Assembly: GCF_027579695.1 (NCBI RefSeq)
Contig: NC_083571.1
Location: forward strand, 84,519,888 to 84,583,887
Direction of reading: 5' to 3'
Length of the DNA stretch: 64,000 nt
Source of the DNA: Neoarius graeffei
Lineage: Eukaryota > Chordata > Actinopteri > Siluriformes > Ariidae
Shown here piece by piece: positions 3,123 to 47,396 of the stretch (its first letter is position 1; each line of letters begins with the position of its first letter). The translations under genes and the position numbers were made by a program. The notes beneath the pieces were generated by a model, which had not been told where the DNA came from, did no database searches, and saw only the letters and a program-made list of their open reading frames with translations.

Positions 3123-3520
3123 AGCTAGAAGGAGGCAGTAGAGACCAAGTGATTCCAGAAATGGACATACAAAGACTTGATCTGTAGTCACTGTGATATA
3201 TTAATGGTGATATGAAATGGGTGGGGTTTTTGTTTGTAAATTTTGCCCCAGTTTGGAATTGTGTACAGTATTTCTGCTAAGTATTTGGAAGGTAAATGTA
3301 AACTTGATCCACTCTTCTACTGATCTGGTTTTAAGGAGTGTCCTAAATCCAGCAAACTGATCATACAAGTTAGGAGCAAAATTGGCAAAAGTCATGGTCA
3401 GAAAGGACCTCTCTGACCTCTCCTGATTGATGCTGCTGTGCCACTGTGTAATGGCCTGCATTCGCATTCACTATCATAATAATCATAATAATAATAAATC
3501 ACTTTAAACTCCTCAGAACA
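3123..3520 (+). other. plpp6 3' untranslated region
   Basis: Sequence after the plpp6 stop. The first plausible polyadenylation signal is AATAAA at 3493-3498. The large inverted duplication begins inside this stretch at about 3248, where homology to 47341-47396 (minus) starts. The minus-strand open frame across it has no recognisable content. Confidence 0.5.
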
Positions 3521-4242
3521 ATGTAAATTTTCTAAGTGTATCACATTAGTAACTTGGTATTAACTGCAATGCTCGAATTGAAAACAATTTTCTCCTTCCA
3601 GATGTTTTTTGATATTTTCAGAAAATTAATGAAGAGAAAGAAAATCCCCAGTATTACTAGGTGAATGGGTAATATGGGTTTATGTTCATATTAATCATTG
3701 AGGTGTGATTGGTTACGTTTTCAATACTCTGTAGCTGCGAGTGGCTGCTAATATCTGATACCGACCTGGTACTCTCTGTGAGCTTCTAGATTCATCACAG
3801 ACATGAAGCTGAGAAGCATGCTCTAAGAAGTGTGTCCTGTCACTAAACATCACATGCAGTTGTAACACTAAATGCATCAGATCAGAAACAGTGGATTGGA
3901 AAATCCAGTTCAATTCCAATTCAGTGTTTTCTATAGTCTGTGTATGCCTAATATTTAAGCATGTGGATTATGGTGAACCTCACTTGTGTTGTCGTTGTGT
4001 GCGATTGTTTTTCGTCTCTACATGCTTTCCATCTCTTTTGGTGAATGTAGAGAGTTTTAATGCACTATTTTCTCTAATTACATGGTGGTCTTTGTTCGTA
4101 CATTTTAGACCACTGATGATTTTATGAAACAGGTTGTTTTATTAAATGAGCTTCATTTTTGTTCCTTTATAGAAATAGATATGTTGTGTATATTGTGCTT
4201 TTTCTTGACATTGTAATTATTTTGACCACACAGTTTAATAGA
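3521..4242. other. Gene-free plpp6 downstream DNA, arm sequence
   Basis: Ordinary AT-rich sequence with no coding signal. Most of 3660-4242 has an inverted counterpart at 34240-34500 plus 36184-36530, so it is duplicated host flank. I see no counterpart for 3310-3655. Confidence 0.6.
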
Positions 4243-4950
4243 AACATCTGCAGACCCACCTGCTCATTCATGCAATTAGCCAGTAAGACACGTGTGGCAG
4301 CAGCTCAGTGTATAACATGCAGCTACAGCGCCGCCCCCCCATCCCCCCCCCCCCCCCCCCAAAAAAAAAAAAAGATGCAAAGGCACGAATTTAAAAAAAA
4401 ATTTTCCAATGAGTGGCAGTTCTGACACTTGTTGATGAGAGAGGTCAGAGGAGAAGGACCAGACTGGTTCGAGCTGACAGTAAGGCAACAGTAACTGAAA
4501 TAACCACTCTTTACAACTGTGGTCAGCAGAAAAGCAGGTCAGTGCACAGTATGCCAAACTGTGAGAAGCTAAAACAGCAGCGAGATCACATTAGATTGCA
4601 CTCCAGTCAGCCAAGAGCAGGAATCTGAGGCTACAGGGGGCGCAGGCTTATTGAAACTAGACAGTTGAAAATTGAAAAACTTTATAGCTGATGTTTTCTG
4701 TCCAGTGTGTGAGCGTGTCCCCAGTGTAGTATCACATTCCTGTTCCTGTAATATGTAGTGCCATTCTCAGATGCTTTCCTGTTCACCATGTTTGCAAAGA
4801 AGGAGTCTCTGAGATCACATTTTTTCCCCATTCTGAAACTCTTGACCTGTATCTGTATGATACACTATACTGCTGCCACATTATTGTCTGGTTGAATAAT
4901 TACATACAGTAAATAAGCAGGTGTACAGATGTTCCAATTAAAGTTGTATA
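4243..4950. mobile_element. Fold-back, internally deleted Tc1 element
   Basis: The two ends are inverted copies of a Tc1 terminus. The left reads inward from ACCTGCTCATTCATGCAATT (about 4258); the right, in reverse complement, reads ACACCTGCTTATT. Between them, 4425-4625 (+) encodes a broken piece of Tc1 transposase (RGQRRRTRLVRADSKATVT, part of the paired-type DNA-binding domain). The right side carries the reversed start region of the same family (a GGGGAAAAAATGTG type start at about 4825). A homopolymer C then A run is at 4338-4373. The counterpart in the other arm (32885-33550) shows the insertion predates the duplication. Confidence 0.7.
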
Positions 4951-6356
4951 CTCTACTATGTTTTATAGCTAAATATAGTACTTTCATGTTATAGGAACAT
5001 TTAAGTGTCCTTTACTCTCACTGGCAGTTTAATAATTATTACTCTTAATTCAGTACGCATGAAAAACTAAAATATACAAAAACAGGACTTTTTATTTTAT
5101 AGCTTCATAGGCAGTTTGGTTTCAAGGCTTTATGCTGAAGCCAACAAAGAAGTTTGTTTTTAAGCAGGTGCTGTGTGTTGTACTCCTCTGACTCCTTCCA
5201 CTACAGCAATGATTTCGAAGAGGAGCTCAGTAACACATTAAAGCCATGAATGTAGAAGAGGCATTTCTTTATAAAAGGAAAAATATGACCAGATTTGTGA
5301 CTCAGTCACTGAGCATCTTGTCTTATTTGTCTCTTTCATACTTTCCTCACTCCTCCTTTGTATACATATTGTGCTTTTCATTTGCACCTGTAGTAGCACT
5401 CTGCTGTTGTACTTACCGTATAAGATGCTGGAGTTAACTGATTTACAGATGCTCTCTCAGTGTAGTCCTGAGGTGAGAAGTCTCTGAAACTCAACACTAA
5501 CAAGTAAATTATCCTAACTAAGTTACCTTATGAGAGGTAATGCATTGCTTACTATGATGTTGCATGCCATAAAACTGTTTTTTACTGTTTGTGTCGTGCT
5601 TTTGACTGTTGTAACCTTTTTTGGCAATACCAGCTGGTGTTTTCATCACTTAGTGCATCCTCGGGTCTGTAGCATTAGAGAATGAGAAACTAAGGCTCAC
5701 CAACAGCACTTTGTCTTGTATGAACTGCAATAATGTTTTTCCAGTTGGGTTTATTTACCAGGGACCATCTTTCAGGAGTGCAAACCTGGGCAGTGAAGGT
5801 TCATGGCCTGTATTGTATCTGGTTCACACTGATTTGATTTCTGTAGCTGTGACCAGTTCAGTCTGTGCCTCGGGTCTGCTTTCTGGTCCTGTGATGCTTC
5901 ATGCTATGCCTTCATCTCTGGTGACTTCACCAGCTGTTCACAAAAATTGCATAAATATCTAAACATATATATACTGTTGATGGTTGTATAATGTAAAATC
6001 TTTTGTCTATCTTAAAAAAAATGCTGCAAAAATGTAAAAGTTGTAAAAGTAATATATGAATGTATGAGTGTGGTGGTTATACATGTGATAAATTATGCTG
6101 TCATTCTATTACTTACTGTTTTTTTTTGTTTGTTTGTTTGTCTTGTAAATAATACATTATGACCCCCATGTTTGCTTTGTGATAAAGAGGATAAAAAAGA
6201 AACCTGATAAACAGTTCAGTAAGATGGGGAGGGTCTGTCATGATCTATGAAGTATCGTATCGTATGATGACCCGCATGAACAACTCTGTAAACATTTCTA
6301 CCTATAAAAGATCCACCTAAACCTGGAAAATTTCTCACAAAGTATTTAGGTAAAAT
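4951..6356. other. Gene-free arm sequence
   Basis: AT-rich with no convincing gene. Several short frames occur but show no domain. Most of it is matched in inverted form at 31620-32880 and 27790-28046, which marks it as duplicated flank rather than a repeat family. Confidence 0.6.
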
Positions 6357-6371
6357 ATATTGTGCCACCTC

Positions 6372-6741
6372 CGGTGGTGTAGTGGTTAGCGCTGTCGCCT
6401 CACAGCAAGAAGGTCCAGGTTCGAGCCCCGTGGCCGGCGAGGGCCTTTCTGTGCGGAGTTTGCATGTTCTCCCCGTGTCCGCATGGGTTTCCTCCGGGTG
6501 CTCCGGTTTCCCCCACAGTCCAAAGACATGCAGGTTAGGTTAACTGGTGACTCTAAATTGACTGTAGGTGTGAATGTGAGTGTGAATGGTTGTCTGTGTC
6601 TATGTGTCAGCCCTGTGATGACCTGGCGACTTGTCCAGGATGTACGCTGCCTTTCGCCTGTAGTCAGCTGGGATAGGCTCCAGCTTGCCTGCGACCCTGT
6701 AGAACAGGATAAAGCGGCGAGAGATAATGAGATGAGATGAG
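6372..6741 (+). repeat. tRNA-type SINE, left-arm-specific insertion
   Basis: Near-complete SINE lacking its first few bases. A 15-bp target duplication, ATATTGTGCCACCTC, is at 6357-6371 and 6742-6756. The inverted counterpart (around 27780) is uninterrupted here, so the insertion came after the duplication. Confidence 0.92.
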
Positions 6742-6764
6742 ATATTGTGCCACCTCTGCTCTAG

Positions 6765-8869
6765 CAGGGTTCCCACGCATCCTGGAAAACCTGAAAATTT
6801 AGTGTGTCATTTTCCAGTCATGGAAATGATCTGGAAATTGATAGAAATGGCCAAATGTCCTGGAAATAAATTTTCTTGTCCTGAAATTTTATTTCTGTGT
6901 TTTCGCTTTTTAATTTTTCTGTTTGAAACAGCTCGCTGGTTGTAGTCTAGATATGAGGACAGCTGAGCTCCATCGTAGCTCGATCTGCTGCGCTATGTCT
7001 CCACCTGTTGCCTATACTGAGACGTGTATAAGCAATTTACATTTGAGTTTTGACCCTCTGAGGTTGCTCTAGCTTGTCATGACAGGAGAACAAGGGAATA
7101 TCAGTTAAATTTTTTTACTGTGTGCGTTAGGGGTGGATGATACTGGGAATTTGGGTATCGATCCGATACCAAGTAAATACAGGGCTAGTATCGCCGATAC
7201 TGTTACTTTTTACTTGAAATGTTATGATCATTGAATAATTTTGTGATTTTGCCTTTTTTAGTTGATTGAGTATGATAAAACACAGGACAAAGATTTTAGG
7301 CAAATAAAAATGTTTTTTATTAACTAACTACAACAGTGTAAAACAACATAACAGTATATTAATAATAAAATAATTCCCTTATCACCTTCTGCTACACAAA
7401 ATTGTTTAAGAAAAAAGCAACAATGTAACAAAAAATGTATAAATATAACAATGTAACAAAAATTATAAATATAACAATGTCAACAACACCACAAAAAATA
7501 CCTTTCATTGCATGCAAATATTTGTGAAAAATAAAGTCAGTAATAAAGTAACAAAGTCAGTAGTGCAAAATAAGTAAACAAAAGCAAAAATGTAATAAAT
7601 ATAACAATATAAACAACACAACAAAAAAAACCCTTCCATTGCACGCAAATATATGTGAAAAATAAAGTCAGTAGTGCAAATCAGGTGTAAACTACAAGTG
7701 GCTTGTAACCTTTGGCTCTTTGCTCACAAAGCCCTCCAAGGAAGTATCCCTTGAGGTGCCCTTTTGGCTCTGTTCCCATGTTGATAACAGATTTAAAGGT
7801 TTTTGTTCAGGAACATGTTTACATGTTTTATTACACCACTTCTCTGAGTTATTAACTGTCCCGCCTTAGAGAAAATCCTTTCTGCAGGTACGGATGTTGC
7901 AATTATTCCCAGATGTTTTTTTTTGCAATCTTGCTCAGAGAGGGAAATGTAGGTTCATTCATTTTCCACCAAAGAAGTGGGTCTCCATCCCGTGGAATTG
8001 GCTTCTCTATCATGTACCGGCGCATTTCAATAGTCGCATCAGTGCCAGCTGTGCGATGCTGCTGTGATTCCAGGATTTGAGTATGAAACTCTGTCCATAT
8101 CCCGCCTTTTGCTGCAGGCGGGGATGGAGAAGCTCCTGCAGGGTAGTATGAGGTAGTTGCAGGAGCCATTGCTGAGGCAGTGCTGGTGGCAGAGCTTGTA
8201 CTAGGTTGAGGATCTGATTCTGAATAGACTGAGGACTGGCTCAGTGACTGCATTTCAGCAACAAGTTTTTTTTTCACTGTGTTAAGATTTGCCATGTCCC
8301 GGAACCCAAAGTTTGTAAATCTTGTGTCCAGGTAGGTGCTGGTACTGAGACCATAGTGGGTTTCAATATTCCTGAAACGGTGCTGGAACTGTGCTGACAG
8401 CACAGCAGCTAGCTTGCTGCCTTGGGCCTCATGAGATGCAGCTGATCTAAGAAGTCATGTTACCAGGGGGATCACCTTTGAAACTGACACGTGTTTTTCA
8501 GATGATATCTATAGTCCTTCATGGTGTGATCAACAGGCCTATACTGAACATTATGGAATTGCTCAGTATATGCCAGTGTTTGGATAGTTTTCCACAACCG
8601 AAGAGGCATTTATTTCTTTAAAAAAGTTTAAAACAGCACGTAACAAAAAGAGGTCAAATAACTGCATTATACAATTTGCATCGATGTTGCCTTTATGTAA
8701 TTTAGCATATCAGAGACACTACATCCCTGCATATTAAAAAAGAAATTAAAATGGTGTTAAGCCTGAGACTAAAGTGCATGACCGTATGACCAAATCCTGT
8801 CATGAATTACCTAAAAAAGCTCCTGGAAATGTCCTGGAAAATGATTCCTTAAAAAGAGTGGGAACCCTG
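6765..8869. mobile_element. hAT element with CAGGGTTCCCAC termini and a nested hAT
   Basis: Inverted termini: CAGGGTTCCCAC at 6765 and GTGGGAACCCTG ending 8869. CTGGAAA motifs repeat near both ends. TCTAG duplicates at 6760-6764 and 8870-8874. The inverted arm near 27770 preserves the empty site with one TCTAG. Inside, from about 7130, a different terminus-like sequence with GGTATCGATCCGATACC palindromes begins, and the transposase remnant belongs to that inner piece. So one hAT appears to have landed inside another. Confidence 0.75.
7793..8403 (-). pseudogene. hAT transposase, C-terminal remnant
   Basis: Minus-strand remnant of a ZBED-type hAT transposase. The frame 8403-7903 carries a Ser/Thr-rich linker, then IPRDGDPLLWWKMNE and FPSLSKIAKKNI, the conserved stretch leading into the hAT dimerisation domain. 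After one frameshift near 7900 the family signature ATSVPAERIFSKAG continues, and the frame ends at TAA 7793-7795. The N-terminal zinc finger and catalytic core are absent. This is a dead copy. Confidence 0.85.
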
Positions 8870-8972
8870 TCTAGGAGTTTTAATCTGTGTTATGCTGAGG
8901 ATATAGTTGAAATGGCAGACTCCTATATACAGTATATTGTATACATCTACTGTATATAGAATGGGCCACACC

Positions 8973-10499
8973 CAGGGCTCGAAATTAACTTTTTTTCTTT
9001 GTGTCCCCTAGTGGTCCCGAATTCTGTGTTGTATTGTCCCGAATGGAAGCAACAGTGTCCCCATTTTTTTCCTCTCTGAAATAACCAGTGGTTAATATTA
9101 TCATATGAAGTTACTATTATATTTGTAACTATGCGATTTTGAACCCTTTATATCATTTTTACAATAACTCACAAGACACAAGCGACACATGTCCTATACA
9201 TCATCTACTTCAAAATTACAGTTATTGCATTTTCAGTTTATTAAACTTTGGCAATCTCACTGTATGAATAGATACCCGTTTATTTAAAGGGGCCAACTAG
9301 CTCATTCAGAAAATGTTTCAACTCCCTACATCTGCAGTACACTTTAGTTGAAAATAAGACCCCTTTTATGTTCATTTCATCTACTTATACCTTGAATATC
9401 TGTTGGCACTTATAAGGCCAACTTATCATTTTCACCATTACCGTTATCCATTTTTATGAACTTTCCGTTATCCATTACCTTTATCCATTTTTATGAACTT
9501 TCCGTTATCCATTTTTATGAACTTTCCGTTATCCATTTCTATGAACTTTCCGTTATCCATTACCGTTATCCATTACCGTTATCCATTTTTATGAACTTTC
9601 CGTTATCCATTTCTATGAACTTTCCGTTATCCATTACCGTTATCCATTTTTATGAACTTTCCGTTATCCATTTCTATGAACTTTCCGTTATCCATTTCTA
9701 TGAACTTTCCGTTATCCATTACCGTTATCCATTTTTATGAACTTTCCGTTATCCATTACCGTTATCCATTTCTATGAACTTTCCGTTATCCATTTCTATG
9801 AACTTTCCGTTATCCATTTTATGAACTTTCGCTGCCGGGTGCAAATTAGCAACATCAGCATAGTGGCAGGTCCGAGCCTAGTTGTGCTGCTGACTGACTA
9901 AACTTTCTGAACTAGAAAGACACCAAGAAAACTCACTTATTCTGTTGAACGGTATCTTCCGTCAATATCATCCACATCATTCCTGTTGTATTCTATAACG
10001 TGTCTAACAGTGTTCATTCAGTTGCTAGCGTTGCCTGCAGACCAGGCGATGACACTTTGGATCCTGAAGGTCCCGGAGACGTTATGTCTGGGCTTTCAGT
10101 TTCTTCCCCGCGGTCGGTCCGCTTCAACCACTTCAGCATTTTTGTTCTGGCAAGAGTCGGCGCAGCGTGTGCGGTAGCAATTCCATTCCAACTCCATATA
10201 ATGCGGACACCGGCCGAAGATTCTAGAACAGAATGCGCTGCTCTGTAGCCTGCGGATGCAGGTGCATCGAAAGTGTAGCTATGTATTTTTCGCTGTTAAC
10301 GTTTTAAAATTAAAATTGACAAATTAGGTGAATGTCTACGTATGTGTGACGGCTTTGTAAATAATATTAATGTAGAACTTTTTTTCTAGATCTATTTTTT
10401 TCCATTGTCCCGGGATTGTCCCAGATATGATAATTTTGTGTCCCGATGACATTTTTTATGGTCCCCGGGACATCGGGACACCGTTAGTTTCGAGCGCTG
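8973..10499. mobile_element. Non-autonomous hAT with 8-bp TSD and internal minisatellite
   Basis: Inverted termini CAGGGCTCGAAATTAAC (8973) and GTTAGTTTCGAGCGCTG (ending 10499). Exact 8-bp target duplication GCCACACC at 8965-8972 and 10500-10507. GTCCCGAAT/GGGACA motifs cluster near both ends, as in hAT subterminal repeats. The middle holds a large minisatellite and then a CpG-richer stretch (about 9840-10260) with short frames and no recognised domain. No transposase. Confidence 0.85.
9440..9830 (+). repeat. Minisatellite of CCGTTATCCATT and ATGAACTTT modules
   Basis: About 390 bp of mixed tandem units. One module is TTTCCGTTATCCATTTTTATGAAC (and a T-to-C variant), the other the 12-bp ACCGTTATCCATT form. 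Modules are shuffled rather than simply repeated. The frame through it is repeat-encoded (HFYELSVI repeats), not a gene. It lies inside the hAT element above. Confidence 0.95.
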
Positions 10500-10727
10500 G
10501 CCACACCTCATCTGGAAAAAGTGAAGCCATCACAGGTCTAGCGCCCCTGCTGGCTGGTTGAAGTACAATTTTAGCCAAGCCCATCCCTATGAGTTTCAAT
10601 GACAAAATAGCATACCTGTCAACACATTTCAGAGTCCAACCTTACAAGCCCTCACAAAAACCCTGAAGGCAAAAAAAAAAAATCCTTACAAACTAAAAAT
10701 GAGACACCTATATTTTGTTTTGAGGCA

Positions 10728-11011
10728 TGTGGCAGCGGGGGCGTGGTCTAGCATTGGTCTGTGACAGGAGGGCGGAGTCAGGGAAGTTAAGTGGCAGAAT
10801 CACTACACCTGTTGTTAATTGATGTGTTTGTGTGTCTTCCCAGTGACCGCGCCCTTCTTAAGGAGAGAGAGTGAGAGCAGAGGGACTCTCTCCACAACCA
10901 GACGGCTGATGTGTGTGCGTTTGCAACTGAAAAGTGCAAATAAAAGAGAGTTTTGTTAAAACAGTTCTGTCCTGCCGTCCTGTGCTCCACCCACCTACAT
11001 GGACTGCTACA
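10728..11011 (+). mobile_element. 5' LTR of a Gypsy-type retrotransposon
   Basis: Starts TGTGGCAGCG and ends GGACTGCTACA. A polyadenylation signal AATAAA is at 10939-10944. Directly after it, TGGTGCCGAAACCTGGGA (11013-11030) looks like a tRNA primer-binding site. About 284 bp. No 3' LTR is present in the window for this copy. Confidence 0.75.
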
Positions 11012-12973
11012 GTGGTGCCGAAACCTGGGACTCGAGCACAGAAGACAACAGCCCCATGGAGTCCTCCACCTTTGCCGACCTGATCCACGCCCTCGCCACG
11101 GCCCAACAGAGCCAGCACCAGGCGCTGCTCGCCCTCCGAAAGGAGCAAGAACAACAGTTCGAGGCCCTGGTGCTGGCGCAACAGGAAGATCGTCGGGCGT
11201 TCCGGCACCTCCTCGCGTCGGCGGGGTCCACCATCTCCACCGCCGCGGGCCCTTCCCCCCTCACCCTCATGAAGATGGGCCCGCAGGACGACCCCGAGGC
11301 ATTCTTCACGCTCTTTGAGCAGGTAGCAGAGACCTCGGGGTGGCCAGTGGAACAGCGCGCGGCGCGCCTCCTCCCCCTGCTAACGGGAGAGGCGCAGCTG
11401 GCCATGCTACAGCTCCCCGCCGACCGCCGGCTGGCCTACGCGGACCTTCGCCGGGCCGTCTTCCAGCGGGTGGGACACACCCCGGAGCAACAACATCAGC
11501 GTTTCCGCGCTCTGCGCTTGGAGGAAGTCGGCCGGCCGGTCGCGTTTGGCCAGCAACTCCGGGACGCCTGCTGGCAGTGGTTGAGGGACTCATCGACCAG
11601 GTGGTACTGGAACAATTTGTCGCGCGTCTACCAGCGGGAACCGCAGAGTGGGTCCAGTGCCACCGCCCGGCATCACTGGATCAGGCAATCGAGCTGGCGG
11701 AGGATCATCTGGCGGCTGTCCCGATGGCAGGACAGCAGACGACCTCTTCTCTCCTCTCTCTCTCCCCTCCTCCTGTGTCTTCTCCTTGCCCCATTCCCCC
11801 ACCGCGGAGACGGGGGCCGGCGCCACCTCAGCCGGCCCGCTGCACCTGCGGTGCTCTTCCGTGTCTCCCTTCTGTGTCTGTCTCTCCCCCCCCTCAGGTG
11901 AGTGAGCCCCAGAGCACTAGTGCAGAGAGGAAGCCCGGGCCAGTTTGCTGGCACTGCAGGGAACCGGGCCACCTCCAACAGCAGTGCTCGATAATGGAGG
12001 TGGGCGCGGTGGTTCGGATCCCCAATGCGCCAGGAGCTGCCCTCGGTCGGGCCGGAGCGTATCGCATACCGGTGAGTATCCAAGGGGATACATATCAGGC
12101 GTTGGTGGATTCTGGCTGTAATCAGACCTCAATCCACCAAAACCTGGTGCAAGATGAGGCATTGGGGGGAGCACAATTGGTGAAGGTGTTGTGTGTGCAC
12201 GGGGATGTTCACAACTACCCTTTAGTGTCGGTCCACATTATTTTCAGAGGGGAAAAATTTATAGTGAAGGCGGCGGTTAATCCTCGCCTTACCCACTCTT
12301 TAATTTTGGGGACTGATTGGCCGGGATTTCGGGGTTTAATGACACACTTAGTCAAGAGTGGGTCCTGCCATTTGACAGGGGGAGGTCCCGGTGTCGCTTT
12401 GGCGGGAGCAGCTGTCACAGAGCCGTCTACGTCATCTCCGCGCCAGAGTGAGGAGCCGCCAGCTCCTCCTCTCTCTATTGGGGAATCCCTCGCGGATTTC
12501 CCATTAGAGCAATCGCGAGACGAGACTCTGCAGCATGCTTTTGACCAAGTGAGAGTAATCGATGGTCAAACGCTCCAGCCGAACGCCACCCCGTCCTTCC
12601 TCTACTTCGCGATTATGAAGGATAGATTATACCGAGTGACACAGGACACTCAAACTAAAGAGCGAGTCACGCAGCTTTTAATTCCGAAGAGCCGCCGGGA
12701 ATTGGTATTCCAGGCGGCTCACTTTAATCCCATGGCTGGACACTTAGGGCAGGATAAAACACTAGCCCGAATAATGGCCTGATTCTCTTGGCCGGGGATT
12801 CGCGGCGATGTCCGTAGGTGGTGTACGGCATGCCACGAATGCCAGTTAGTAAATTCAGCGGCCATTCCAAAAGCGCCTTTGCACCCTCTACCGTTAATCG
12901 AGACCCCGTTCAAAAGAATTGGGATGGATCTCGTCGGGCCATTAGATCGGTCAACATGAGGAGACAAGTTGCT
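11011..12973 (+). pseudogene. Deleted Gypsy retrotransposon: gag, protease, integrase start
   Basis: Internal region of a Gypsy element in damaged form. The gag capsid-like part is open from 11056 (ATG, MESSTFADL...) to about 11590. A frame change moves the reading to the frame of 11340-12782. That frame carries a CCHC zinc knuckle at about 11943-11990, then an aspartic-protease signature (VDSGCN) near 12106. Reverse transcriptase and RNase H are missing. The sequence jumps to the integrase HHCC zinc module (about 12720-12850), broken by TGA at 12780-12782, and to the first residues of the integrase core. At about 12973 it is cut off against a Tc1 element. The copy cannot move by itself. Confidence 0.85.
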
Positions 12974-15037: not shown

Positions 15038-15087
15038 GTTTACATTAGACCGTATCTGTCTCGTTTTCTTCGCGGATGCACTGTCCG

Positions 15088-18297: not shown

Positions 18298-18944
18298 ACT
18301 GTCCGTTTACATTAAAATGCCTGGAAACGCCGGGAAACGGGAATCCGCCGGGGTCCACGTATTCAATCTAGATCGTGTCTGGTCCGGTGCTGTGTAAACA
18401 TTGAGAATACGCGGATACGCTGTGCTGAGCTCTAGCTGGCGTCGTCATTGGACAACGTCACTGTGACCTCCACCTTCCTGATTCGCTGGCGTTGGTCATG
18501 TGACGCGACTGCTGAAAAACGGCGTGGACTTCTGCCTTGTATCACCTTTCATTAAAGAGTATAAAAGTATGAAAATACTGCAAATACTGATGCAAATACT
18601 GCCCATTGTGTAGTTATGATTGTCTTTAGGCTTGCCATCCTTCCACTTGCAAGTGGTAAGTGATATGCACTGAGATCACACACACAGCGGCTCAGTCCCA
18701 AATCACTGCTCGTGCACTACACTCGCGCGCTCTGTGAGCTGCACAGGGCCGGAGTGCTCACCCTCCAGAGGGCACTCGCTGTTCAGGGCGGAGTGATTTG
18801 GAGCACAGGATGCCTGCGGAGCCGAGCGTATCCGTGTATTGGTGTTGCTGTGTGCACGCGAATCATGTATTGGTGTTGCTGTGTGCATGCTAATCGTTTT
18901 AAAAACGTTAATCTGATGATCCGCTGATACGGTCTAATGTAAAC

Positions 18945-24110: not shown

Positions 24111-24126
24111 CTATGAGCTAGTGGTA

Positions 24127-36183: not shown

Positions 36184-36641
36184 CTTAAATATTAGGAATA
36201 CACAGATACAGAAACACTGAATTGGAATTGAATTGAGCTGGATTTTCCAATCCATTGTTCCTGATTTGATGCACTGAAGTATTTAGTGTTACAACTGCAT
36301 GTGATGTTTACTGATAGGACACACACTTCTTAGAGCATGCTTCTCAGCTTCATGTCTGTGATGAATCACTTAATATTGTAACAGAAGCTCACAGAGTGTA
36401 CCAGATCGGTATGAGGTCTTGGTAGTCACTCAGACCTACTGAGTACTGAAAATGTAACCAATCACACTTTAATGATTAATATGAACATTAACCCATAATT
36501 CTCATTCACCTTGTAAAAATCCAGCCACTGGGGGTGCATAAGCGTACTCTTACTTCCGGTCCCAAGCCCAGATAAATTGGCTTCTTTGCTTTGCTCCTGC
36601 TTGCTCTTTAATTTTTTTACTTTTTCACCTAATTTCCAAAA

Positions 36642-38110
36642 ATGCCAGGGGGCAAAAAATCCAGGAGATCCTGCAGAAAATGTACAGAACTAGAACAGAG
36701 GATTTCCATCCTGGAATCAAAGATTGATGCCCTGCCAAAGACAGACGAACTAAGAGAGATAGCTCACGAAAGGAGTACAGAAACAGTGGTTGAGAATGCA
36801 GAGATTACACCCCAACAGGCTGATGGCATTGCAGATTGAGTGGATGAATACATCGATCTAACAGAGCAAAATGTGAGTACAGAAAACTGGCACACGATGG
36901 GTGGCAGGCCCAAAAATAAAAACAGAAGAGTAATTACCTCAACACCAGTTCGTTCTGATACTATGCAACCCATACTCCACAGTCATGCTATTAGAAATAG
37001 AGCCAGATCTATTAACTACAATAGGATTTACAGTCCTATGGAAAATCCACAGCCCATAAGGCTTCAGAACAAATTTGAATGCCTCAGGGATGTGGAAGCA
37101 GAATTTTCAGGCGGACAAGCACATCATAGAAAGAGATCGCACCACAACCGAAGAGCTGTGGGAAGAGGCAAAAAGCAGCTCATAACACCACCTGATCCCA
37201 CAACCCTTGTTCTTGGTGATTCCACTATAAGACATTTAAAAGGACATAGGATGATTATTTGCTGCCTTCCAAATGCATCCATCTCTGACACCAAAGACAG
37301 CATTTTGAAACTCATGTCCGAGCATAAAACTATCAAACGTATTGTTGTGCATGTGGGAGCAAATGATGTTTTCAGAGAACAGCTTATAATGGCACTCTGT
37401 TTCATTACCAAATGTACCACTTGTGAGCTGCAGACACAGTAATTCTTCATGCGCATGACATGAGAGGTAGTTTCAATTTCAGGAGTCTTTAGTTGAAATT
37501 CCAAAATGTTACAATTGTCACATGACACCCAAGTCACACGGTAAGAAAACTTTATGCTCCCGTGCCTTGCGCAGCTCTCACTAAACTGACTGAATCTGCG
37601 CATGCTCTGTAACATCATCAATCTAAGAGAGCGTCATTAATACATTATATATCCACATTATCATTTTTTAAATAGCCTATTATAAATTACACTATGTCAT
37701 TACTATGCATCAAACAAAATATAAATTGCAACTATAAATTATATATATTTTCTGCATTACCATTACTGGTTTATGGCTCTTACACAGCTGTTTGTCCAAG
37801 ATGATTTCAGAAAACTTTTTTCTTACCTCTATAAGACTAGAATACAATCTTTTATCAGTGGCCCATTCCCTGCAAGGAGAAGTTTTGCATTTACTAGACT
37901 CTTCAGTCTTAACACCTGGCTTGGAAAAACTTGTTTTTCATTTGGTATGAACTTCATAGACAATTTTAACCTTTTCTGGAATCGCAGAGAATTCTTCAGG
38001 CCAAATAGCACTGAACTCAGCCAGATTGGGACCAAAGTTTTGGCTGATCACTACAGCCTCTCTCTCCAGCATGCATTCTTTTCTCAGCCAACATCGGGCA
38101 GAACTGCTGA
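36642..38110 (+). pseudogene. LINE A ORF1 with SGNH-esterase-like domain
   Basis: From ATG 36642 (MPGGKKSRRSCRKCTELEQR) a coiled-coil-like N-terminus runs to TGA 36837-36839. The frame then continues to 37385. It carries LVLGDSTIRHLKG (Gly-Asp-Ser block of SGNH hydrolases) and VVHVGANDVF (Gly-x-Asn-Asp block). A 399-bp insertion (37385-37783) interrupts it; after that, FVQDDFRKLF and IQSFISGPFP continue. Esterase-type ORF1 proteins are known in CR1/L2-group LINEs. Confidence 0.8.
37385..37783. mobile_element. Short unclassified insertion in LINE A ORF1
   Basis: 399 bp present in LINE A but absent from LINE B at the same codon. ACAGCT is duplicated on each side (37379-37384, 37784-37789). AT-rich, no open frame, no obvious inverted termini. 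Probably a small non-autonomous element. Confidence 0.6.
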
Positions 38111-38718
38111 TGTGCTCACAGACTGACCCAGTTACAGATATCAACAAAACCTCTGCAAAGCCAAAACAACTACCCATGCAAGCACAGCAGAGATGCTTCA
38201 GCAAGGACACACAGCCATCTGGGGCAGACTGCCAAGGACATCAACAATCACATGGAGAATGTGAGCATGTTGTTAACAATGGGCAGCCACAGATATCTGC
38301 ATCGCGCATCCAGATTGAGGACCTGACCAAAGACAATCATGCCAAGGCTGCATCATCCACATCACAGAGACTGTTATGGAGACAATCACCATGGAGACAG
38401 TCATGGAGACACTCACAAAGACCTCACCAAAGTCCCAATCTCAGTCTCGCTCTTCTGACTTCATTGTACCATCCCCGTCTCCCCCCTGCATGGATGTCCC
38501 TAAAAGTATGCAGAGATTGCTGCCAATGGCTGCACTCTCTTTTTCCAGCCCAAATCATTCGCGACAAGCAGTGTACCCAGTTCATCGAAAACCAACCAAC
38601 AGACTGAACTGTGTTCGCCCAGGACTTTCAGCTGGCTACCAATCTTTTTCACCATCTAAAAAATACATGACATCTCCATTCCTTCCCCCTCCCAACCTCA
38701 TGGAATATACAGAGAGTC

Positions 38719-39227
38719 TTGTATCTTGATTTTGTAGTCTTGAATCTTGATTTCTTGCTTCTAACTGTAACATGGCTGGATCAAGCAAAGAGTGCTACCA
38801 CCCTTATTGAAGCAGCTCCCCCAAATTTTAATTTCATGAGTGCTACCCGACATGGGAAAGGTGGAGTGATCGCAAATATATTCAAAGCCTCTTTTCAATG
38901 TAAACAGTCCTCACTTGGTGATTTTACATCCTTTGAACACTTATGTGCACTTCTTACATGCTCTCCTAATATATTGTTGTTAACTATTTACAGGCCTCCG
39001 AGACATTCAGCCAAAGTTTTTCTGGAAGAGTTTGGTGAACTGTTGTCAGTCATTTGCTTAGAGTTTGACTGTCTTATTATATCTGGGGATTTTAACTTGC
39101 ATGTAGATAATCCTGAAAACACTTATGCCAGAGAACTACTTGCACTTATTGACAACTTCAACCTAGTACAGCATGTACAGGGGCTGACCCACTCTCGTGG
39201 TCATACCCTTGACCTCGTTATCTCAAA
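38719..39227 (+). pseudogene. LINE A endonuclease, N-terminal part
   Basis: AP-like endonuclease reading DFLLLTVTWLDQA, ILLLTIYRPP and CLIISGDFNLHVDN (catalytic GDFN), then HSRGHTLDLVIS, where LINE B cuts in. The usual TETWLD Glu is TVTWLD here, so the key catalytic Glu is lost. Confidence 0.85.
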
Positions 39228-39582
39228 GGCAAGGCAAGGCAAGTTTATTTATATAGCACATTTCATACACAATGGCAGTTCAATGTGCTTTACAGAAGTA
39301 AAAACAAAAACAGTAAACAATAGAGAAATAAAATTACCTAAAATAATTTTATTTTTATTCTAAAACAATTAATTAAAAGGATTAAAAGAATTAAAAGAAA
39401 ATAATAAGAATTAAACAATAGTAGAAATAAAATAATAAAATGAAGTAGTAGTTCAAATAGGAGGAGAAAAAAGAAACCAGCAGAATAGAATAAAGAATAA
39501 AATAGAATAAAGTTAAAGTAAATTTAAAACATGCAGAGAAAGTAAAGATTATAAAAAATGTAAAGAAGACAATATTAATTAT

Positions 39583-40930
39583 TTAACAGAAAGCATCTGA
39601 AAACAGCTTGGTCTTTAACCTAGATTTGAAGCTGCCAACAGCAGGAGCATTTTTAATGTCCTCTGGCAGTTGGTTCCATAGCTGTACTGCATAGTAGCTA
39701 AAAGCTGCTTCACCATACTTTGTTTTAACAACTGGTTTTAATAGTAAATTTTTCTGTTTTGATCTGGTAGATCTGATTGGGTTAGGCCGCTGCAACATAT
39801 CAGAGAGGTAATTGGGCCCTGTACCATTTAGAGATTTGTATACCAGCAGCAATACTTTAAAGTCAATTCTGTAGCTTACTGGAAGCCAGTGAAGGGACCT
39901 TAGAATTGGAGTAATGTGCTCTGTTCTTTTTGTTCGTGTGAGAACCCTAGCCGCTGCATTTTGAACCAGCTAAAGTTGTTTGATGGTCTTTTTTGGCAGG
40001 CCTGTGAAAAGGCCATTGCAGTAATCAACCCTACTAGAGATGAAGGCATGTATTAGTTTTTCCAGATCATTTTTTGACATAAGTCCTCTTAGTTTGGAAA
40101 TGTTTTTTAGGTGATAAAATGCCGTTTTAGTGATTGCTTTCATATGACTGTCAAAGTTTAGCTCGCTGTCAATGAAAACACCAAGATTTTTAACCATTTC
40201 TTTAGTTTTAATCCCTTTTGTGTCAAGAATAGTGGTAATCCTGAGTCTTTCATCTTTTTTCCGAATATAATTACTTCTGTTTTATCTATGTTCAGCTGAA
40301 GAAAATTTTGTGACATCCAGCTATTGATTTGATCGATACACTGGTAGAGACATTCAAGGGGGGCATAATCATTACGTGATAGAGCAAAATAAATTTGGGT
40401 GTCATCTGCATAGCAGTGATACAAAATTGAATTTTTATTGATAATTTGCCCAAGTGGAAGCATATAAAGGTTGAAAAGTAATGGTCCAAGAATCGACCCC
40501 TGGGGGACACCACAGGTCAAGGACATTGACGTTGAGGAATAATTTCCCAGGGTAACAAAGAAGCTTCTATCTTTTAAGTATGAATTTAACCAATTGATAA
40601 CTTTACCAGTCAATCCAACCCAGTGTTCAAGTCGATATAGCAGTATGTTGTGATCAACAGTATCAAAAGCTGCACTGAGGTCCAGTAATACAAGGACCGA
40701 TGTTTTGCCTGCATCGGTATTAAGACGTATGTCATTTATAACTTTAATCAGCGCTGTTTCAGTGCTGTGATTGGCACGAAATCCTGACTGAAAATTATCA
40801 AAACGGCTGTTTGATATCAAGAAGGCAGTTAATTGATTTAAGACAATTTTTTCAAGGATTTTCCCGATGAATGGTAAATTTGATATTGGCCTGTAGTTAC
40901 TTAATACTGAAGGATCCAGATTATTTTTTT
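39583..40930 (-). pseudogene. LINE B reverse transcriptase
   Basis: Minus strand. Frame 40820-40158 has GFRANHSTETAL, VLLDLSAAFDTVDH, GVPQGSILGP and YADDTQIYFA (catalytic YADD). A frameshift at about 40190 leads to NLGVFIDSELNFDSH. After a further break near 39970, the C-terminal LLVYKSLNGTGPNYL and FSYYAVQLWNQLPEDI finish at 39583. Two small shifts; otherwise well preserved. Confidence 0.88.
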
Positions 40931-42694
40931 TAAGAAGGGGCTTTACAACGGCTTTTTTTTAGGGACACAGGAACAACGCCAGTCTCCAGGGATGTATTTA
41001 TAATTTGAAACACATCTGTAATTATAAGATGAAGAACAGACTTAAAAAAGTTGGTGGGCAGAATGTCCAATTCAGATGTTGAGGAACTGAGATTTTGTAC
41101 AGCTTTTTCAAGAGTCTCATCATGAATTAAACAAAATTCTGACACTGTGTTGATGTTATCTATCTGTATCATTGGTGATTGCAGTTTTTCAATTTTTTGC
41201 AACTGAGATATATTATGAGGAATATTCTGCCATATTTTATCAATTTTACCTTTGAAAAAGGATGCAAACTCATTGCATTTATTAACTGAGAGAAGTTCAG
41301 GTGCTAATTGTGGTGGGGGATTAGTTAGCTTCTCTACTGTTGAAAATAGCACACGGGCATTGTTCATATTCCTGCTGATGATGTTGGAGAAGAAAGACTG
41401 TCTTGCTTTATGAATTTCATCATTATAATTACAAAGCATCTCTTTATGGATTTGATAATGGATGTGAAGTTTAGATTTGCGCCATTTTCTTTCAGTCTTT
41501 CTACATTCTCTCTTTAGCAGTTTAACAGCCGGGTACTGCTTCCATGGTGCTTTCTGCTTATCATTGACTCTTTTGATTTTGAATGGAGCAATATCATCCA
41601 TAATTTGGGTCATATTTAAATTAAAAAATTCCAGTAAATCATCTACAGAGTCTGACATTTTGGTTGAGTTCTGAGAGAGAGCTTGCTCAAAGAGAGCACA
41701 TGTGTTGTCTTTTATGACTCTCCTACCTATAGTCGTTGAGCTGTTCTGAATGTGAGGAGACATAGAAACATCAAAGAAAACACAGAAATGATCGGATAAG
41801 GCCAGGTCAACAACAGTATTAGAAACAGTAAGACCCTTTGTGATGAGGAGGTCAAGAGTATGACCACGAGAGTGGGTCGGCCCCTGTACATGTTGTACTA
41901 GGTTGAAGTTGTCAATAATTGTAAGTAGTTCTTTGGCATAGGTCAAAAGTATGACCACGAGAGTGGGTCGGCCCCTGTACATGTTGTACTAGGTTGAAGT
42001 TGTCAATAATTGCAAGTAGTTCTTTGGCATAAATGTTATCAGTATTATCTACATGCAAGTTAAAATCCCCAGATATAATAAGACAATCAAACTCTAAGCA
42101 AATGACTGATAACAGTTCACCAAACTCTTCAAGAAAGACTTTGGCTGAATGTCTCGGAGGCCTATAAATAGTTAATAATAATATGTTAGGAGAGCATGTA
42201 ACAAGTGCACATAAGTGTTCAAAGGACATAAAATCACCAAGTGAGGATTGTTTACATTGAAAAGAGACTTTGAATATATTTGCGATCCCTCCACCTTTCC
42301 CTTGTCGGGTAACATTCAAAAAATTAAAATTTGGGGGAGCTGCTTCAATAAGGGTGGTAGCACTATTTGCTTGATCCAGCCAGGTTTCAGTTAGAAGCAA
42401 AAAATCAAGATTGTGTTTGCAAATAAGATCATTAATTAAAAATGACTTGTTTAAAAGTGATCTAACGTTCAGAAGAGCTAGCTTTACAGAAAGTCTAGAA
42501 GTACTATCTGCTTGTGCACTCTGATGCTGTTTTAAAACAGGAAGGAGATTAGATTGGTTCACCCCCAGGGTTAAATGTGCTCTATGTTTTCTGTTTCTTA
42601 TCAACACAGGAATAGAGAGTGGCATAGGCACATTGGGTCCCAGCTGGTTTTCAACACTACACCCATTTGCAGGGACCCAGAGTACATCAAACAA
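40930..42694 (-). pseudogene. LINE B endonuclease and linker, frameshifted by a tandem duplication
   Basis: AP-like endonuclease in frame 42694-41912: LLTETWLDQAN (catalytic Glu kept), IYRPPRHSAK, LIISGDFNLHVDN. A 91-bp tandem duplication (41851-41941 and 41942-42032) shifts the frame. Coding resumes in 41982-40930 with LALSDHFCVFFDVS (the final SDH block) and the region before the RT, ending at SLKKSRCKAPS by another small shift. Confidence 0.85.
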
Positions 42695-44019
42695 GACTTT
42701 CTAAATGTTCCATTTGGTTTGAGGGTGAAAGGATTGGAGATGACATGTATCTTTTGGATGGTGAAAAAGATTTGTAGCCAGCTGAAAGTCCTGGGCGAAC
42801 ACAATTTTGATGAACTGGGTACACTGCTTGTGGCGACAGATTTGGGCTGGAAAAAGAGAGTGTAGCCATTGGGAGCAATTTTTTCATGCTATTTGGGAAA
42901 TCCATCCGAGGGGAAGTGGAGTCCTCTGTCTTTGAATGTTGGGAGTCTTGCAGGTCAGATGTCTGTGTGTCCTTGATGACGACTTGCAAAGATGATTGTT
43001 TAGGCTTTGTAACTATGTCAGTCTGCAACATCTTATCAACTGTTTTCCTCAATGCTGGCTGAGAAAAGATTGCAAGTCTGTAATGGTCTACTAAGACTTT
43101 GGCTCCAATCCAGCTGAGTTCAGTGCTATTTGGCTTGTAAAATTCTCTGCGATTCCAGAAAAGGTTAAAATTGTCTATGAAGTTCAAATGAAAAACAAGT
43201 TTTTCCAAGCCAGGTGTTAAGACTGAAGAGTCGAGAAAAAGCAAAACTTCCTCTCGCTGGGAGTGGGCCACTGATAAAAGATTGAATTCCAGTCTTATAG
43301 AGCTCAGAAAAAAGTTTTCTGAAATCATCTTGGACAAACAGCTGTTCTCTGAAAACATCATTTGCTCCCACATGCACAACAATACGTTTAATAGTTTTAT
43401 GCTCGGACATGAGTTTCAAAATGCTGTCTTTGGTGTCAGAGATGGATGCATTTGGAAGGCAACAAATAATCATCCCATAACCTTTTAATTGTCTTACAGT
43501 GGAATCACCAAGAACAAGGGTTGTGGGATCAGGTGGTGTTACGAGCTGCTTTTTGCCTCTTCTCACAGCTCTTCGATCTTGGTGCGATCTCTTTTTACTA
43601 TGTGTTTGTCCGCTTGAAAAATCCTCTTCCACATCCCTGAGGCATTCAAATTTGTTCTGAAGCCTTATGGGCTGTGGATTTTCCATAGGATTGTAGATCC
43701 TATTGTAATTTGTAGAACGAGCTGGTGTTGAAGTAATTACTCTTCTGTTTTTATTTTTGAGCTTACCACCCATCATTTGCCAGTTTTCTGTACTCACATT
43801 TTGCCCAGCTTGATTGATGAATTCTTCCACTTGATCTGCAATGTCCTCGGTCTGTCGGAGTGCAATCTCTGCATTCTCAGCCACTGTTTCTGTACTCCTT
43901 TCCTGAGATATTGCTTTTAATTCGTCCATCTTTGGCAGAGCATCAATCTTTGATTCCAGAATAGAAATCCTCTGTTCTAGTTCCATGCATTTTCTGCAGG
44001 ATTTTTTGCTCCCTGGCAT
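42687..44019 (-). pseudogene. LINE B ORF1 with SGNH-esterase-like domain
   Basis: Open from ATG 44019 (MPGSKKSCRKCMELEQR) for 284 residues. An N-terminal heptad-like segment (LEQRISILESKIDAL) is followed by a basic linker, LVLGDSTVRQLKG, VVHVGANDVFREQ and SFISGPLP. A frameshift near 43180 moves it to the frame ending at 42687. Better preserved than in LINE A. Confidence 0.82.
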
Positions 44020-44399
44020 TTTGTATTAAAAACTAACTTATCTTATAAAGATGAAAAAAAATAGTGGAAATTAAATTAAAATTAAATTAAAAGCTTATAA
44101 AGATGAAAAATAAAATGAGAAAAAATTGTGGAAATTCAATGAGAAAGTAAAGTATAGAAATAAAGATCAAGAAAGCAGGAGCAAAGCAAAGAAGCGTCCT
44201 ACTCGCTTGAGTAGGAGGAGCATGGGTCTTACTGTTTCTACTACTGTTGTTGGCCTGGCCTTATCTGATCATTTCTGTGTTTTCTCTGATGTTTCTATGT
44301 CCCCTCACATTCAGAACAGCTCAATGACTATGGGTAGGAGAGTCATAAACGACAACACGTGTTCTCTTTGAGCAAGCTCTCTCACGGATCTCAACTAAA

Positions 44400-46468
44400 A
44401 TGTCAGACTCTGTAGATGACTTACTGGAAATTTTTAATTCAAATATGACCCAAATTATGGACGATATTGCTCCATTCAAAATCAAAAGAATCAATGACAA
44501 GCAGAAAGCACCATGGAAGCAATGCCCAGCTGTTAAACTGCTAAAGAGAGAATGTAGGAAGACTGAAAGAAAATGGCGCAAATCTAAACTTCACATCCAT
44601 TATCAAATCCATAAAGAGATGCTTTGTAAATATAATTATGAAATTGGTAAAGCAAGACAGTCTTTCTTCTCCAACATCATCAACAGGAATATGAACAATG
44701 CCCGTGTGCTGTTTTCAACAGTAGAGAAGCTAACTAATCCCCCACCACAATTAGCACCTGAACTTCTCTCAGTTAATAAATGCAATGAGTTTTCATCCTT
44801 CTTCAAAGGTAAAATTGATAAAATACGGCAGAATATTGCTCATAATATATCTCAGTTGCAAATAACTGAAAAGCTGCAATCACCAGTGACACAGACAGAC
44901 AATTTCAACACAATGTCAGAATTTTGTTTGATTGATTACAAGACTCTTGAAAAAACTGTACAAAATCTCAGTTCCTCAACATCTGAATTGGACATTCTGC
45001 CCACCAACTTTTTTAAGTCTGTTCTTCACCTCATAATTACAGATGTGCTTCAGATCATAAATACATCCCTAGAGACTGGCGTTTTTCCTGTGTCCCTGAA
45101 AAAAGCTCTTGTAAAGCCCCTACTTAAAAAGAATAATCTGGATGCTTCAGTATTGAACAACTACAGGCCAATATCAAATCTACCATTCATCGGGAAAATC
45201 CTTGAAAAAATTGTCTTCAATCAATTAACTGCCGTCTTGATATCAAACAGCTGCTTTGATAACTTTCAGTCAGGATTTCGTGCCAATCACAGCACTGAAA
45301 CAGCGCTGATTAAAGTTATAAATGACATACGTCTTAATACTGATGCAGGCAAAACATCGGTCCTGGTGTTACTGGACCTCAGTGCAGCTTTTGGTACTGT
45401 TGATCACAACATACTGCTATATCGACTTGAACACTGGGTTGGGTTGACTGGTAAAGTTATCAATTGGTTAAAATCATACTTAGAAGCTTCTTTGTTACCA
45501 TGGGAAATTGTACCTCAACATCAATGTCCTTGACCTGTGGTGTCCCCCAGGGGTCGATCCTTGGACCATTACCATTCAAACTTTATATGCTCCCACTTGG
45601 ACAAATTATCAAGAACAACTCAATTTTGTATCACTGCTATGCAGATGACACCCAAATTTACTTTGCTCCATCACCTAATGATTATGCCCCCCTTGAATGT
45701 CTCTACCAGTGTATCGACCAAATCAACAACTGGATGTCACAAAATTTTCTTCAGCTGAACACAGATAAAACAGAAGTAATTATATTTGGGAAAAAAGATG
45801 AAAGACTCAGGATTACCACTATTCTTGACACAAAGGGGATTAAAACAAAATATATGGTTAAAAATCTTGGTGTTTTCATTGACAGCAAGCTAAACTTTGG
45901 CAGTCATATGAAAGCAATCACTAAATCGGCATTTTATCACCTAAAAAACATTTCCAAACTAAGAGGACTTGTGTCAAAAAATGATCTGGAAAAACTTATA
46001 CATGACTTCATCTCTAGTAGGGTTGACTACTGCAATGGCCTTTTCACAGGCCTGCCAAAAAAGACCATCAAACGACTTCAGCTGGTTCAAAATGCAGCGG
46101 CTAGGGTTCTCACACAAACAAAAAGAACAGAGCACATTACTCCAATTCTAAGGTCCCTTCACTGGCTTCCAGTAAGCTACAGAATTGACTTTAAAGCATT
46201 GTTGCTGGTGTACAAATCTCTAAATGGTACAGGGCCCAATTACCTCTCTGATATGTTGCAGCGGCCTAACCCAATCAGATCTACAAGATCGCAGCAGCAA
46301 AATTTACTGGTAAAACCTGTTGTTAAAACAAAGTGTGGTGAAGCAGCTTTTAGCTACTATGCAGTACAGCTATGGAACCAACTCCCAGAGGACATCAAAA
46401 ATGCTCCTGCTGTTGGCAGCTTCAAATCTAGATTAAAGACCAAGCTGTTCTCAGATGCTTTCTGCTAA
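44400..46468 (+). pseudogene. LINE A reverse transcriptase
   Basis: Plus strand, 377-residue frame (44400-45533) then a 334-residue frame (45464-46468), overlapping through one shift near 45480. It includes LDLSAAFGTVDH (the usual FD is FG, so the first catalytic Asp is replaced), GVPQGSILGP, CYADDTQIYFA and the complete C-terminus ending AFC at 46468. Confidence 0.88.
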
Positions 46469-46769
46469 CTGATAAATGTCATTATCTTTACATGTTTTAA
46501 ACTTTACTTAACTTTTACAGTCTCTGCATGTTTTAAATTTTACTTAACTTTTATTCCATTTTATTCTGCTGTTTTTACTGAACTTTTACTTCATTTTATT
46601 ACTTTATTTCTATTGCTTAATTCTCATATTATTTTTATTTTTCTTCTTCCCCCTTTATTTTATGTAATTTTATTTTTTATTGTTTACTGTTTTGCCTTTA
46701 CCTCTGTAAAGCACATTAAACTGCCACTGTGTATGAAATGCGCTATATAAATAAACTTGCCTTGCCTTG

Positions 46770-47221
46770 GAGAGGGTTGCGTCAGGAAAGGCATCCAGCG
46801 TAAAATCGTGCCAAATCTAACATGCAGATTGAAAAGAGAAATACCATACCGGATCAGTCAGGGCCCGGGTTAACAACAACCGCCTCCAGTATTATTGGTC
46901 AACAGGGTGCCGGTGGAAAGTATGCTACTGTTGCATCAAAATGGAGAAGGAGAAAGAGAGGGGGGAGGCGTGTTAGGAGAGAGCATGAAAGATGGAAGGG
47001 AAGGAGCTTAGAATTGAGGGTAGGAACACTGAATGTGGGAACATTGACTGGCAGAGCGAGAGAGTTACAGTAGCAGGTATGACGGAAAGAAGGAAGTTGG
47101 ACATTTTATGTGCGCAGGAGACGAGATGGAAAGGAAGCAAGACCAAGAACATTGAAGGTGGATGCAAGTTGTTTTATTATGGAGCCGATGGAAAGAGAAA
47201 TGGTGTTGGTATTGTTTTGAG
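46770..47221 (+). mobile_element. RTE-clade LINE 5' fragment
   Basis: Begins GAGAGGGTTGCGTCAGG, the leader of an RTE/BovB-like fish LINE, and enters its endonuclease: LELRVGTLNVGTLTG, then after a shift LDILCAQETRWKG (catalytic Glu) and FYYGADGKRNGVGIV. It breaks off at 47221 against a partial SINE. Confidence 0.75.
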
Positions 47222-47342
47222 GGGAAACACAGGGAGAACATGCAAACTCCACACAGAAAGGCCCCTGTTGGCCGCTGGTCTTGAACCCAGAACCTTCTTG
47301 CTGTGAGGGAATAGTGCTAACTACTACACCACCGTGCTGCCT
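47222..47342 (-). repeat. Partial tRNA-type SINE
   Basis: Reverse-oriented head half only (GGGAGAACATGCAAACTCC to the CACCGTGCTGCC end), joined directly to RTE sequence. Its body and tail are missing. Confidence 0.88.
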
Positions 47343-47396
47343 CAACTTTGCATTTACCTTCCAAACATTTAGCAGACATACACAATTCCAAACTGG

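What the first reader, a model, noticed from the sequence alone, without database searches (positions are those of the whole stretch)
3248..47396. Large inverted duplication of plpp6 downstream DNA, spanning about 44 kb
At least eight separate blocks of 3248-10610 recur in reverse complement and mirrored order within 26612-47396. Both arms share unique-looking 3' flank and an old fold-back Tc1, so this is a segmental duplication rather than a repeat family. The inner boundary is abrupt (GACAAAATAG / CTATTTTGTC). The original arm may have been about 3-4 kb before TE growth.
Basis: seen in the sequence. Interest (0 to 1): 0.75.

Follow-up and report, generated by a model that had tools for sequence, protein, structure and literature searches.

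The report
Old inverted duplication beside fish gene
About three kilobases next to a lipid-phosphatase-like gene in what looks like a fish genome were copied backwards nearby long ago, joined to a scrap of a neighbouring FMO gene, and then swollen by jumping genes; this is a real but ordinary kind of genome rearrangement, with one junction that hints at how it formed.

Summary
Confirmed. Ten collinear BLAST segments of 3248-10610 recur, reverse-complemented and in mirrored order, in 47396-26612: 2603 aligned bases, 7.9% mismatch, K2P 0.084. The arms differ in size through later mobile-element insertions. Two arm-1 insertions have a clean empty site in arm 2, with target-site duplications of 15 and 5 bp. 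Without insertions the arms are about 3.3 and 2.7 kb. The inverted pair at 36.6-46.8 kb is separate: one LINE nested in another.

Five bases beyond arm 2 lies an inverted 75-bp copy (88%) of the splice acceptor and first coding exon of an FMO-like gene at 56.9 kb. So the copy is compound: the right end of the local interval (FMO) is fused to its left end (the plpp6-like 3' flank), the join expected of a DNA circle, a tandem-duplication junction or a backward template switch, placed in reverse.

Genome-wide copy number is untested: the genome search did not answer in seven tries. Verdict: real, old, local segmental duplication; new member of a known kind; modest interest.

The parts
   Evidence: Pfam PAP2 E=7.1e-17 on ORF 2718-3122; splice acceptor and stop read by eye
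3248..10610 (+). arm 1 (7363 bp; 3333 bp without its three insertions)
26612..47396 (-). arm 2, inverted copy of arm 1 (20785 bp; 2710 bp without the stretches absent from arm 1)
47402..47476 (-). 75-bp inverted copy of the FMO-like first coding exon with its splice acceptor, 5 bp from the outer end of arm 2
   Evidence: 88% to 56964-56890, E=5.5e-21; best of 200 resamples 39.2 bits against 96.0
56890..57073 (+). source: FMO-like gene, intron end (to 56932) and first coding exon (56933-57073)
   Evidence: Pfam FMO-like E=1.3e-20 on ORF 56762-57124; exon bounds by eye
4240..4950 (.). old element shared by both arms (imperfect inverted ends about 4243-4313 / 4870-4947), so present before the duplication
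   Evidence: Tc1-like nature recalled, no Pfam domain in 4 of 6 frames
6372..6741 (+). SINE inserted in arm 1 only; 15-bp target-site duplication ATATTGTGCCACCTC; empty site in arm 2
6765..8869 (.). hAT-like transposon in arm 1 only (inverted ends CAGGGTTCCCAC), 5-bp duplication TCTAG; empty site in arm 2
   Evidence: hAT dimerisation domain E=2.3e-05 in ORF 7903-8454
8973..10499 (.). hAT-like element in arm 1 only (ends CAGGGCTCGAAATTAAC / GTTAGTTTCGAGCGCTG), 8-bp duplication GCCACACC; the exact empty site is not preserved in arm 2
   Evidence: hAT nature from ends and duplication length (recalled), no domain tested
26695..27683 (.). element in arm 2 only, with THAP-domain ORF 26775-27197(+) and weak inverted ends (26737-26762 / 27631-27657)
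   Evidence: Pfam THAP E=6.8e-14
28053..31620 (+). LINE-like insertion in arm 2 only
   Evidence: endonuclease/RT-like ORFs by eye, no Pfam hit in the 2 ORFs tested
31714..32047 (+). SINE in arm 2 only (with one flanking repeat copy); flanking direct repeats imperfect, about 12 bp
33484..34151 (.). extra 668 bp in arm 2 bounded by a 74-bp direct repeat of part of the shared old element
34497..36187 (.). 1.7-kb insertion in arm 2 only, ends TGTAGGTACA / TGCACCCACA, 4-bp TAAG repeat
36580..46769 (+). LINE B in arm 2 (36580-39229 + 44224-46769), interrupted by LINE A (39230-44223, minus strand) of the same family; a separate inverted pair
47227..47341 (-). partial SINE near the outer end of arm 2
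47475..48337 (-). partial Tc1 that cuts the FMO copy; Gypsy-like remnants follow; together they hide the far end of the copied segment
   Evidence: DDE_3 domain in this stretch
10611..26611 (.). spacer between the arms; no homology found between its two ends; holds Gypsy-like, Tc1, LINE and SINE pieces

Best explanation
This is an old, local, compound inverted segmental duplication. A stretch of about 3.3 kb just downstream of a PAP2-family (plpp6-like) gene was copied once, in reverse orientation, between that gene and the downstream FMO-like gene. The copy is fused at its outer end to a fragment of the FMO-like gene's first coding exon. Shown by sequence: the two arms, their mirrored order, the shared older element, the later arm-specific insertions, and the FMO fragment 5 bp from the arm end. 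Inferred: that both fragments were copied in one event. In the donor order the plpp6-like flank (A) lies left of FMO (D); in the copy D is joined directly to A, both in the same relative orientation. A circle or head-to-tail junction made from the A-to-D interval and placed backwards inside that interval gives this. So does replicative template switching that jumped back from FMO to the flank. It has no evident function; it has decayed and grown by mobile-element insertion since.
For: Mirrored collinear blocks. K2P 0.084 over 2603 columns. The first 53 columns of the FMO piece, up to the start codon, differ at 4 sites (7.5%), like the arms (7.9%); over all 75 columns 9 differ, Fisher p=0.19 against the arms. 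Clean empty sites for two arm-1 insertions and, with imperfect repeats, continuous arm-1 sequence at three arm-2 insertions. FMO fragment beside the arm end, E=5.5e-21. The only other copy of each fragment seen in the window is its source, in the same relative orientation. No copy of the phosphatase coding exon elsewhere in the window. The order change is the signature described for circle-mediated human duplications (PMC7450558, abstract and passages seen).
Against: The FMO piece is only 75 bp, and its coding part is more diverged (5 mismatches in the 22 columns before the presumed end; 8 in 28 if read on to column 81) than its noncoding part. The far end of the copy is lost under a Tc1 and Gypsy-like remnants, so a one-event origin is not proved. 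Divergence is not uniform: chi-square across 10 blocks p=0.029, with a mild decline towards the centre (Spearman -0.34, p=0.015). Arm-1 bases 3308-3653 have no counterpart found in arm 2. No host-genome copy number and no related species were available.
Confidence: 0.72

Rival explanations
1. Two separate events: an FMO gene fragment or inverted FMO paralogue already lay here, and the copy of the phosphatase gene's flank later broke into it.
For: FMO genes often occur in clusters (recalled). The coding part of the fragment is more diverged than the noncoding part.
Against: No FMO domain was found on the minus strand of 40000-54000 (3 frames, E up to 0.001) or 12000-26600 (3 frames, E up to 0.1); 26601-39999 was not scanned as whole frames, and the scan did not detect the 75-bp piece itself, so short remnants could be missed. 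The join is within 5 bp, and noncoding divergence equals that of the arms.
Confidence: 0.17
2. Fold-back inverted duplication: a broken end folded back and was copied, leaving a single-copy spacer; the FMO piece is a later patch (overlaps with the previous rival).
For: A spacer without homology between its ends separates the arms. A 7-bp hairpin (AAAATAG-A-CTATTTT) sits exactly at the inner boundary of arm 2; 10 of 63960 window positions have such a stem with a 1-nt loop, 119 with loops of 0-3.
Against: Inverted microhomology between the spacer ends is 0 bp; PMC3907307 reports 2-8 bp in 13 of 21 junctions and about 300 bp in 3 (passages seen), so its absence counts against but does not exclude. 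The hairpin was noticed after the fact.
Confidence: 0.18
3. The arms are two copies of a dispersed mobile element, or the terminal repeats of a giant transposon.
For: The interval is dense in mobile elements, and about 0.7 kb of each arm is an old element. Copy number outside the window is untested.
Against: No matching terminal motif or target-site duplication seen at the arm ends (by eye). No third copy of the arms in the window, while the SINE has at least 13 full or partial copies there. No domain in 3130-6370 of arm 1 in 4 of 6 frames. One outer end is in a gene's 3' flank, the other abuts an FMO exon copy.
Confidence: 0.08
4. Assembly artefact.
For: No reads could be checked.
Against: The arms differ by 7.9% and carry different insertions, three of them in arm 1 with exact target-site duplications; misjoined alleles would not be expected to.
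Confidence: 0.02

Closest known systems
Circle-mediated segmental duplications (human cSDPs, Chicote et al. 2020, PMC7450558; abstract and passages seen)
   Same: Donor end joined to donor start in the copy, both blocks in the same relative orientation, no long homology at the join.
   Different: Only one junction is resolvable here; the FMO block is 75 bp; the copy sits inside its own donor interval, inverted.
Fold-back inverted duplications (PMC3907307; passages seen)
   Same: Inverted copy separated from the original by a non-duplicated spacer.
   Different: No inverted microhomology at the spacer ends; inside a chromosome stretch rather than next to a terminal deletion, as far as the window shows; FMO fragment at the outer end.
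Microhomology-mediated break-induced replication / template switching (PMC2621351; listing and start of abstract only)
   Same: Compound joining of nearby segments with little homology (a possible 3-bp CAG shared at the join, read by eye).
   Different: Junctions too old to read reliably.

Membership tests
Local inverted segmental duplication | two collinear, mirrored copies, not a family with further copies nearby | tested here: met
   ten mirrored segments; no third copy in the window apart from a 74-bp repeat inside the shared old element
Local inverted segmental duplication | low copy number in the host genome | not testable with these tools
   The genome search not answered; a SINE pattern of the window is absent from viral contigs
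Circle-mediated segmental duplication | order change: donor end joined to donor start in the copy | tested here: met
   copy of FMO up to 56964 joined to copy of 3248 with a 5-bp gap at 47397-47401
Circle-mediated segmental duplication | opening point and acceptor site resolved, with only microhomology or short indels | tested here: inconclusive
   far end hidden by Tc1 and Gypsy-like remnants; inner end shows no shared bases
Fold-back inverted duplication | non-duplicated spacer between arms | tested here: met
   no homology found between the ends of 10611-26611
Fold-back inverted duplication | inverted microhomology at the spacer ends | tested here: not met
   0 bp
Dispersed mobile element / giant transposon | terminal repeats and target-site duplication at the arm ends | tested here: not met
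   none seen by eye at either end

The most novel reading that the evidence does not exclude
An extrachromosomal circle excised between the plpp6-like 3' flank and the FMO first coding exon reinserted backwards into its own locus of origin. That would make it a fossil circle junction in a fish, readable as FMO|plpp6-like flank at 47.4 kb.
Probability: 0.3. Interest if true: 0.45.

Novelty: new member of a known kind. Interest (0 to 1): 0.3.

Why it matters
It shows how an inverted duplication with arms of about 3 kb came to span 44 kb by mobile-element insertion, with each arm serving as control for insertions in the other. If the FMO junction proves to come from the same event, it is a readable scar of circle or template-switch duplication in a fish. 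No effect on either gene is shown.

Tried and rejected
Copy of the phosphatase coding exon beside arm 2: none found with 560-3300 as query. Retrocopy of a long 3' UTR: rejected, since no poly(A) tract follows the inner end of arm 2 and no AATAAA/ATTAAA lies in 10310-10610 (the nearest, at 10309, is inside the third insertion). Continuation of the arms beyond the inner boundary: the 23 bp next to arm 2 have no other match with up to 3 mismatches, and the 14 bp after arm 1 show no excess of matches (6 found, 8.0 expected). FMO exons in the spacer: none by Pfam on the minus strand of 12000-26600 (3 frames); the plus strand as whole frames, 10611-11999 and 26601-39999 were not scanned for this. 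The strong inverted pair at 36.6-46.8 kb was set aside as nested LINEs (K2P 0.084 over 4357 columns of six aligned pieces). A PDB search of the phosphatase exon gave only two bacterial-type PAP2 enzymes and does not settle the name plpp6. Literature: 'plpp6', 'fmo5', 'teleost', 'inverted duplication', at least 2 of 4: 29 papers, 8 listed, none of those 8 holds plpp6; three further searches were used for mechanism, as listings except the papers named as seen.

Full report
What is there. The window is vertebrate DNA, very likely from a ray-finned fish (judged by recall from the SINE and Tc1 types; not tested). A PAP2-family phosphatase exon ends at 3122 and an FMO-like first coding exon begins at 56933. 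Between them lies an inverted pair. Arm 1 is 3248-10610. Arm 2 is 47396-26612 on the other strand. Ten segments match in mirrored order at 80-96% BLAST identity. A block-by-block global alignment, with block limits that I set from the BLAST ends, gives 2603 compared bases, 205 mismatches (127 transitions, 78 transversions), 54 gaps, K2P 0.084.

Chance and repeat controls. 200 Markov-resampled versions of 3123-6372 reached at most 40.1 bits against the window, while the best real block reaches 848. The arms have no third copy in the window on either strand; the exceptions are a 74-bp direct repeat inside arm 2's copy of the shared old element (93%), the resemblance between that element's two ends (about 71%), and a chance-level 22-bp match. 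The SINE family, in contrast, has at least 13 full or partial copies. A 35-bp SINE pattern is absent from viral contigs, so that collection is unlikely to stand in.

Why the arms differ in length. Arm 1 holds three insertions that arm 2 lacks. The first is a SINE (6372-6741) with the 15-bp duplication ATATTGTGCCACCTC. The second is a hAT-like transposon (6765-8869) with ends CAGGGTTCCCAC and the 5-bp duplication TCTAG; its ORF 7903-8454 carries a hAT dimerisation domain. The third is another element with hAT-like ends (8973-10499) and the 8-bp duplication GCCACACC. Arm 2 shows the uninterrupted site for the first two. For the third it has an insertion of its own close by (26695-27683, with a THAP-domain ORF), so the exact site is not preserved there. 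Arm 2 further holds a LINE-like insertion (28053-31620), a SINE (31714-32047), a 1.7-kb element with a 4-bp repeat (34497-36187), a partial internal duplication (33484-34151) and a large block (36517-47341) with the nested LINEs and a partial SINE. Net lengths are 3333 bp (arm 1) and 2710 bp (arm 2). Arm-1 bases 3308-3653 have no counterpart found in arm 2.

The other inverted pair. 36580-39229 plus 44224-46769 is one LINE (plus strand). 39230-44223 is a second LINE of the same family, inserted in it backwards (reverse-transcriptase and endonuclease domains). It gives the highest-scoring inverted match in the window (3597 bits) and is not part of the duplication. Its two copies differ by K2P 0.084 over 4357 columns, the same figure as the arms, which I take as coincidence.

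The outer junction. Reading arm 2 outwards, homology to the phosphatase gene's 3' flank stops at 47396. After 5 bases, 47402-47476 matches 56964-56890 inverted at 88% (E=5.5e-21). 200 resamples of the FMO region reached at most 39.2 bits against 96.0. The matched source is the splice acceptor and the start of the FMO-like gene's first coding exon. The first 53 columns, up to the start codon, differ at 4 sites, like the arms; the coding part differs at 5 of 22 before the presumed end. Over the 75 columns the rate (9 of 75) does not differ significantly from the arms (Fisher p=0.19). At 47475 a Tc1 cuts the FMO copy next to a TA, and Gypsy-like remnants follow, so the far end is lost.

Meaning. 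In the donor the phosphatase flank (A) lies to the left of FMO (D). In the copy D is joined straight to A, and both have the same relative orientation. This is the join made by closing the A-to-D interval into a circle, or by its tandem duplication, or by a backward template jump. PMC7450558 (abstract and passages seen) uses this order change as evidence for circular intermediates, with only microhomology and short indels at the joins. Here a 3-bp CAG may be shared (by eye), but after 8% divergence that is weak. A tandem duplication followed by one inversion would give the same order, and I cannot separate these routes. The fold-back model (PMC3907307, passages seen) would favour inverted microhomology at the spacer ends (2-8 bp in 13 of their 21 junctions, about 300 bp in 3); there is none here (0 bp), although a 7-bp hairpin marks the inner end of arm 2.

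Divergence along the arms. Blocks are not uniform (chi-square p=0.029) and fall slightly towards the centre (Spearman -0.34 over 52 bins of 50 columns, p=0.015; permutation of the Pearson correlation p=0.008). This could be gene conversion near the centre or alignment effects. I do not build on it.

Verdict. A real, old, local inverted segmental duplication, compound at its outer end, enlarged by mobile elements. It is of a known kind. Of the papers, PMC7450558 was seen as abstract and passages, PMC3907307 as passages, PMC7188851 as outline and abstract; the others as listings with the start of the abstract.

Noticed in passing
36580-46769: One LINE inserted backwards into another of the same family, giving a strong inverted repeat of its own; AAGGCAAGGCAAG marks the tail side of the inserted copy.
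   Followed up: yes
15037-18950 and 19673-20451: The second stretch matches only the two ends of the first (52 bp at 100%, then 90.5% and 96%), as if a LINE copy with most of its interior missing.
   Followed up: no
26695-27683: Short element with a THAP-domain ORF on one strand and a convergent ORF (27097-27684, minus) that by eye resembles ORF 1317-1766 (minus); not compared by a tool.
   Followed up: partly
57507-57728: A second THAP domain (Pfam E=3.4e-07) just downstream of the FMO exon.
   Followed up: no
33484-34151: Arm 2 holds an extra 668 bp bounded by a 74-bp direct repeat (93%) inside the shared old element.
   Followed up: partly
26604-26618: A 7-bp hairpin with a 1-nt loop exactly at the inner boundary of arm 2.
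   Followed up: partly
9435-9830, 41849-42031, 48842-49062, 54367-54563: Tandem arrays (24-bp minisatellite, 91-bp and 117-bp doublets, TA repeat).
   Followed up: no
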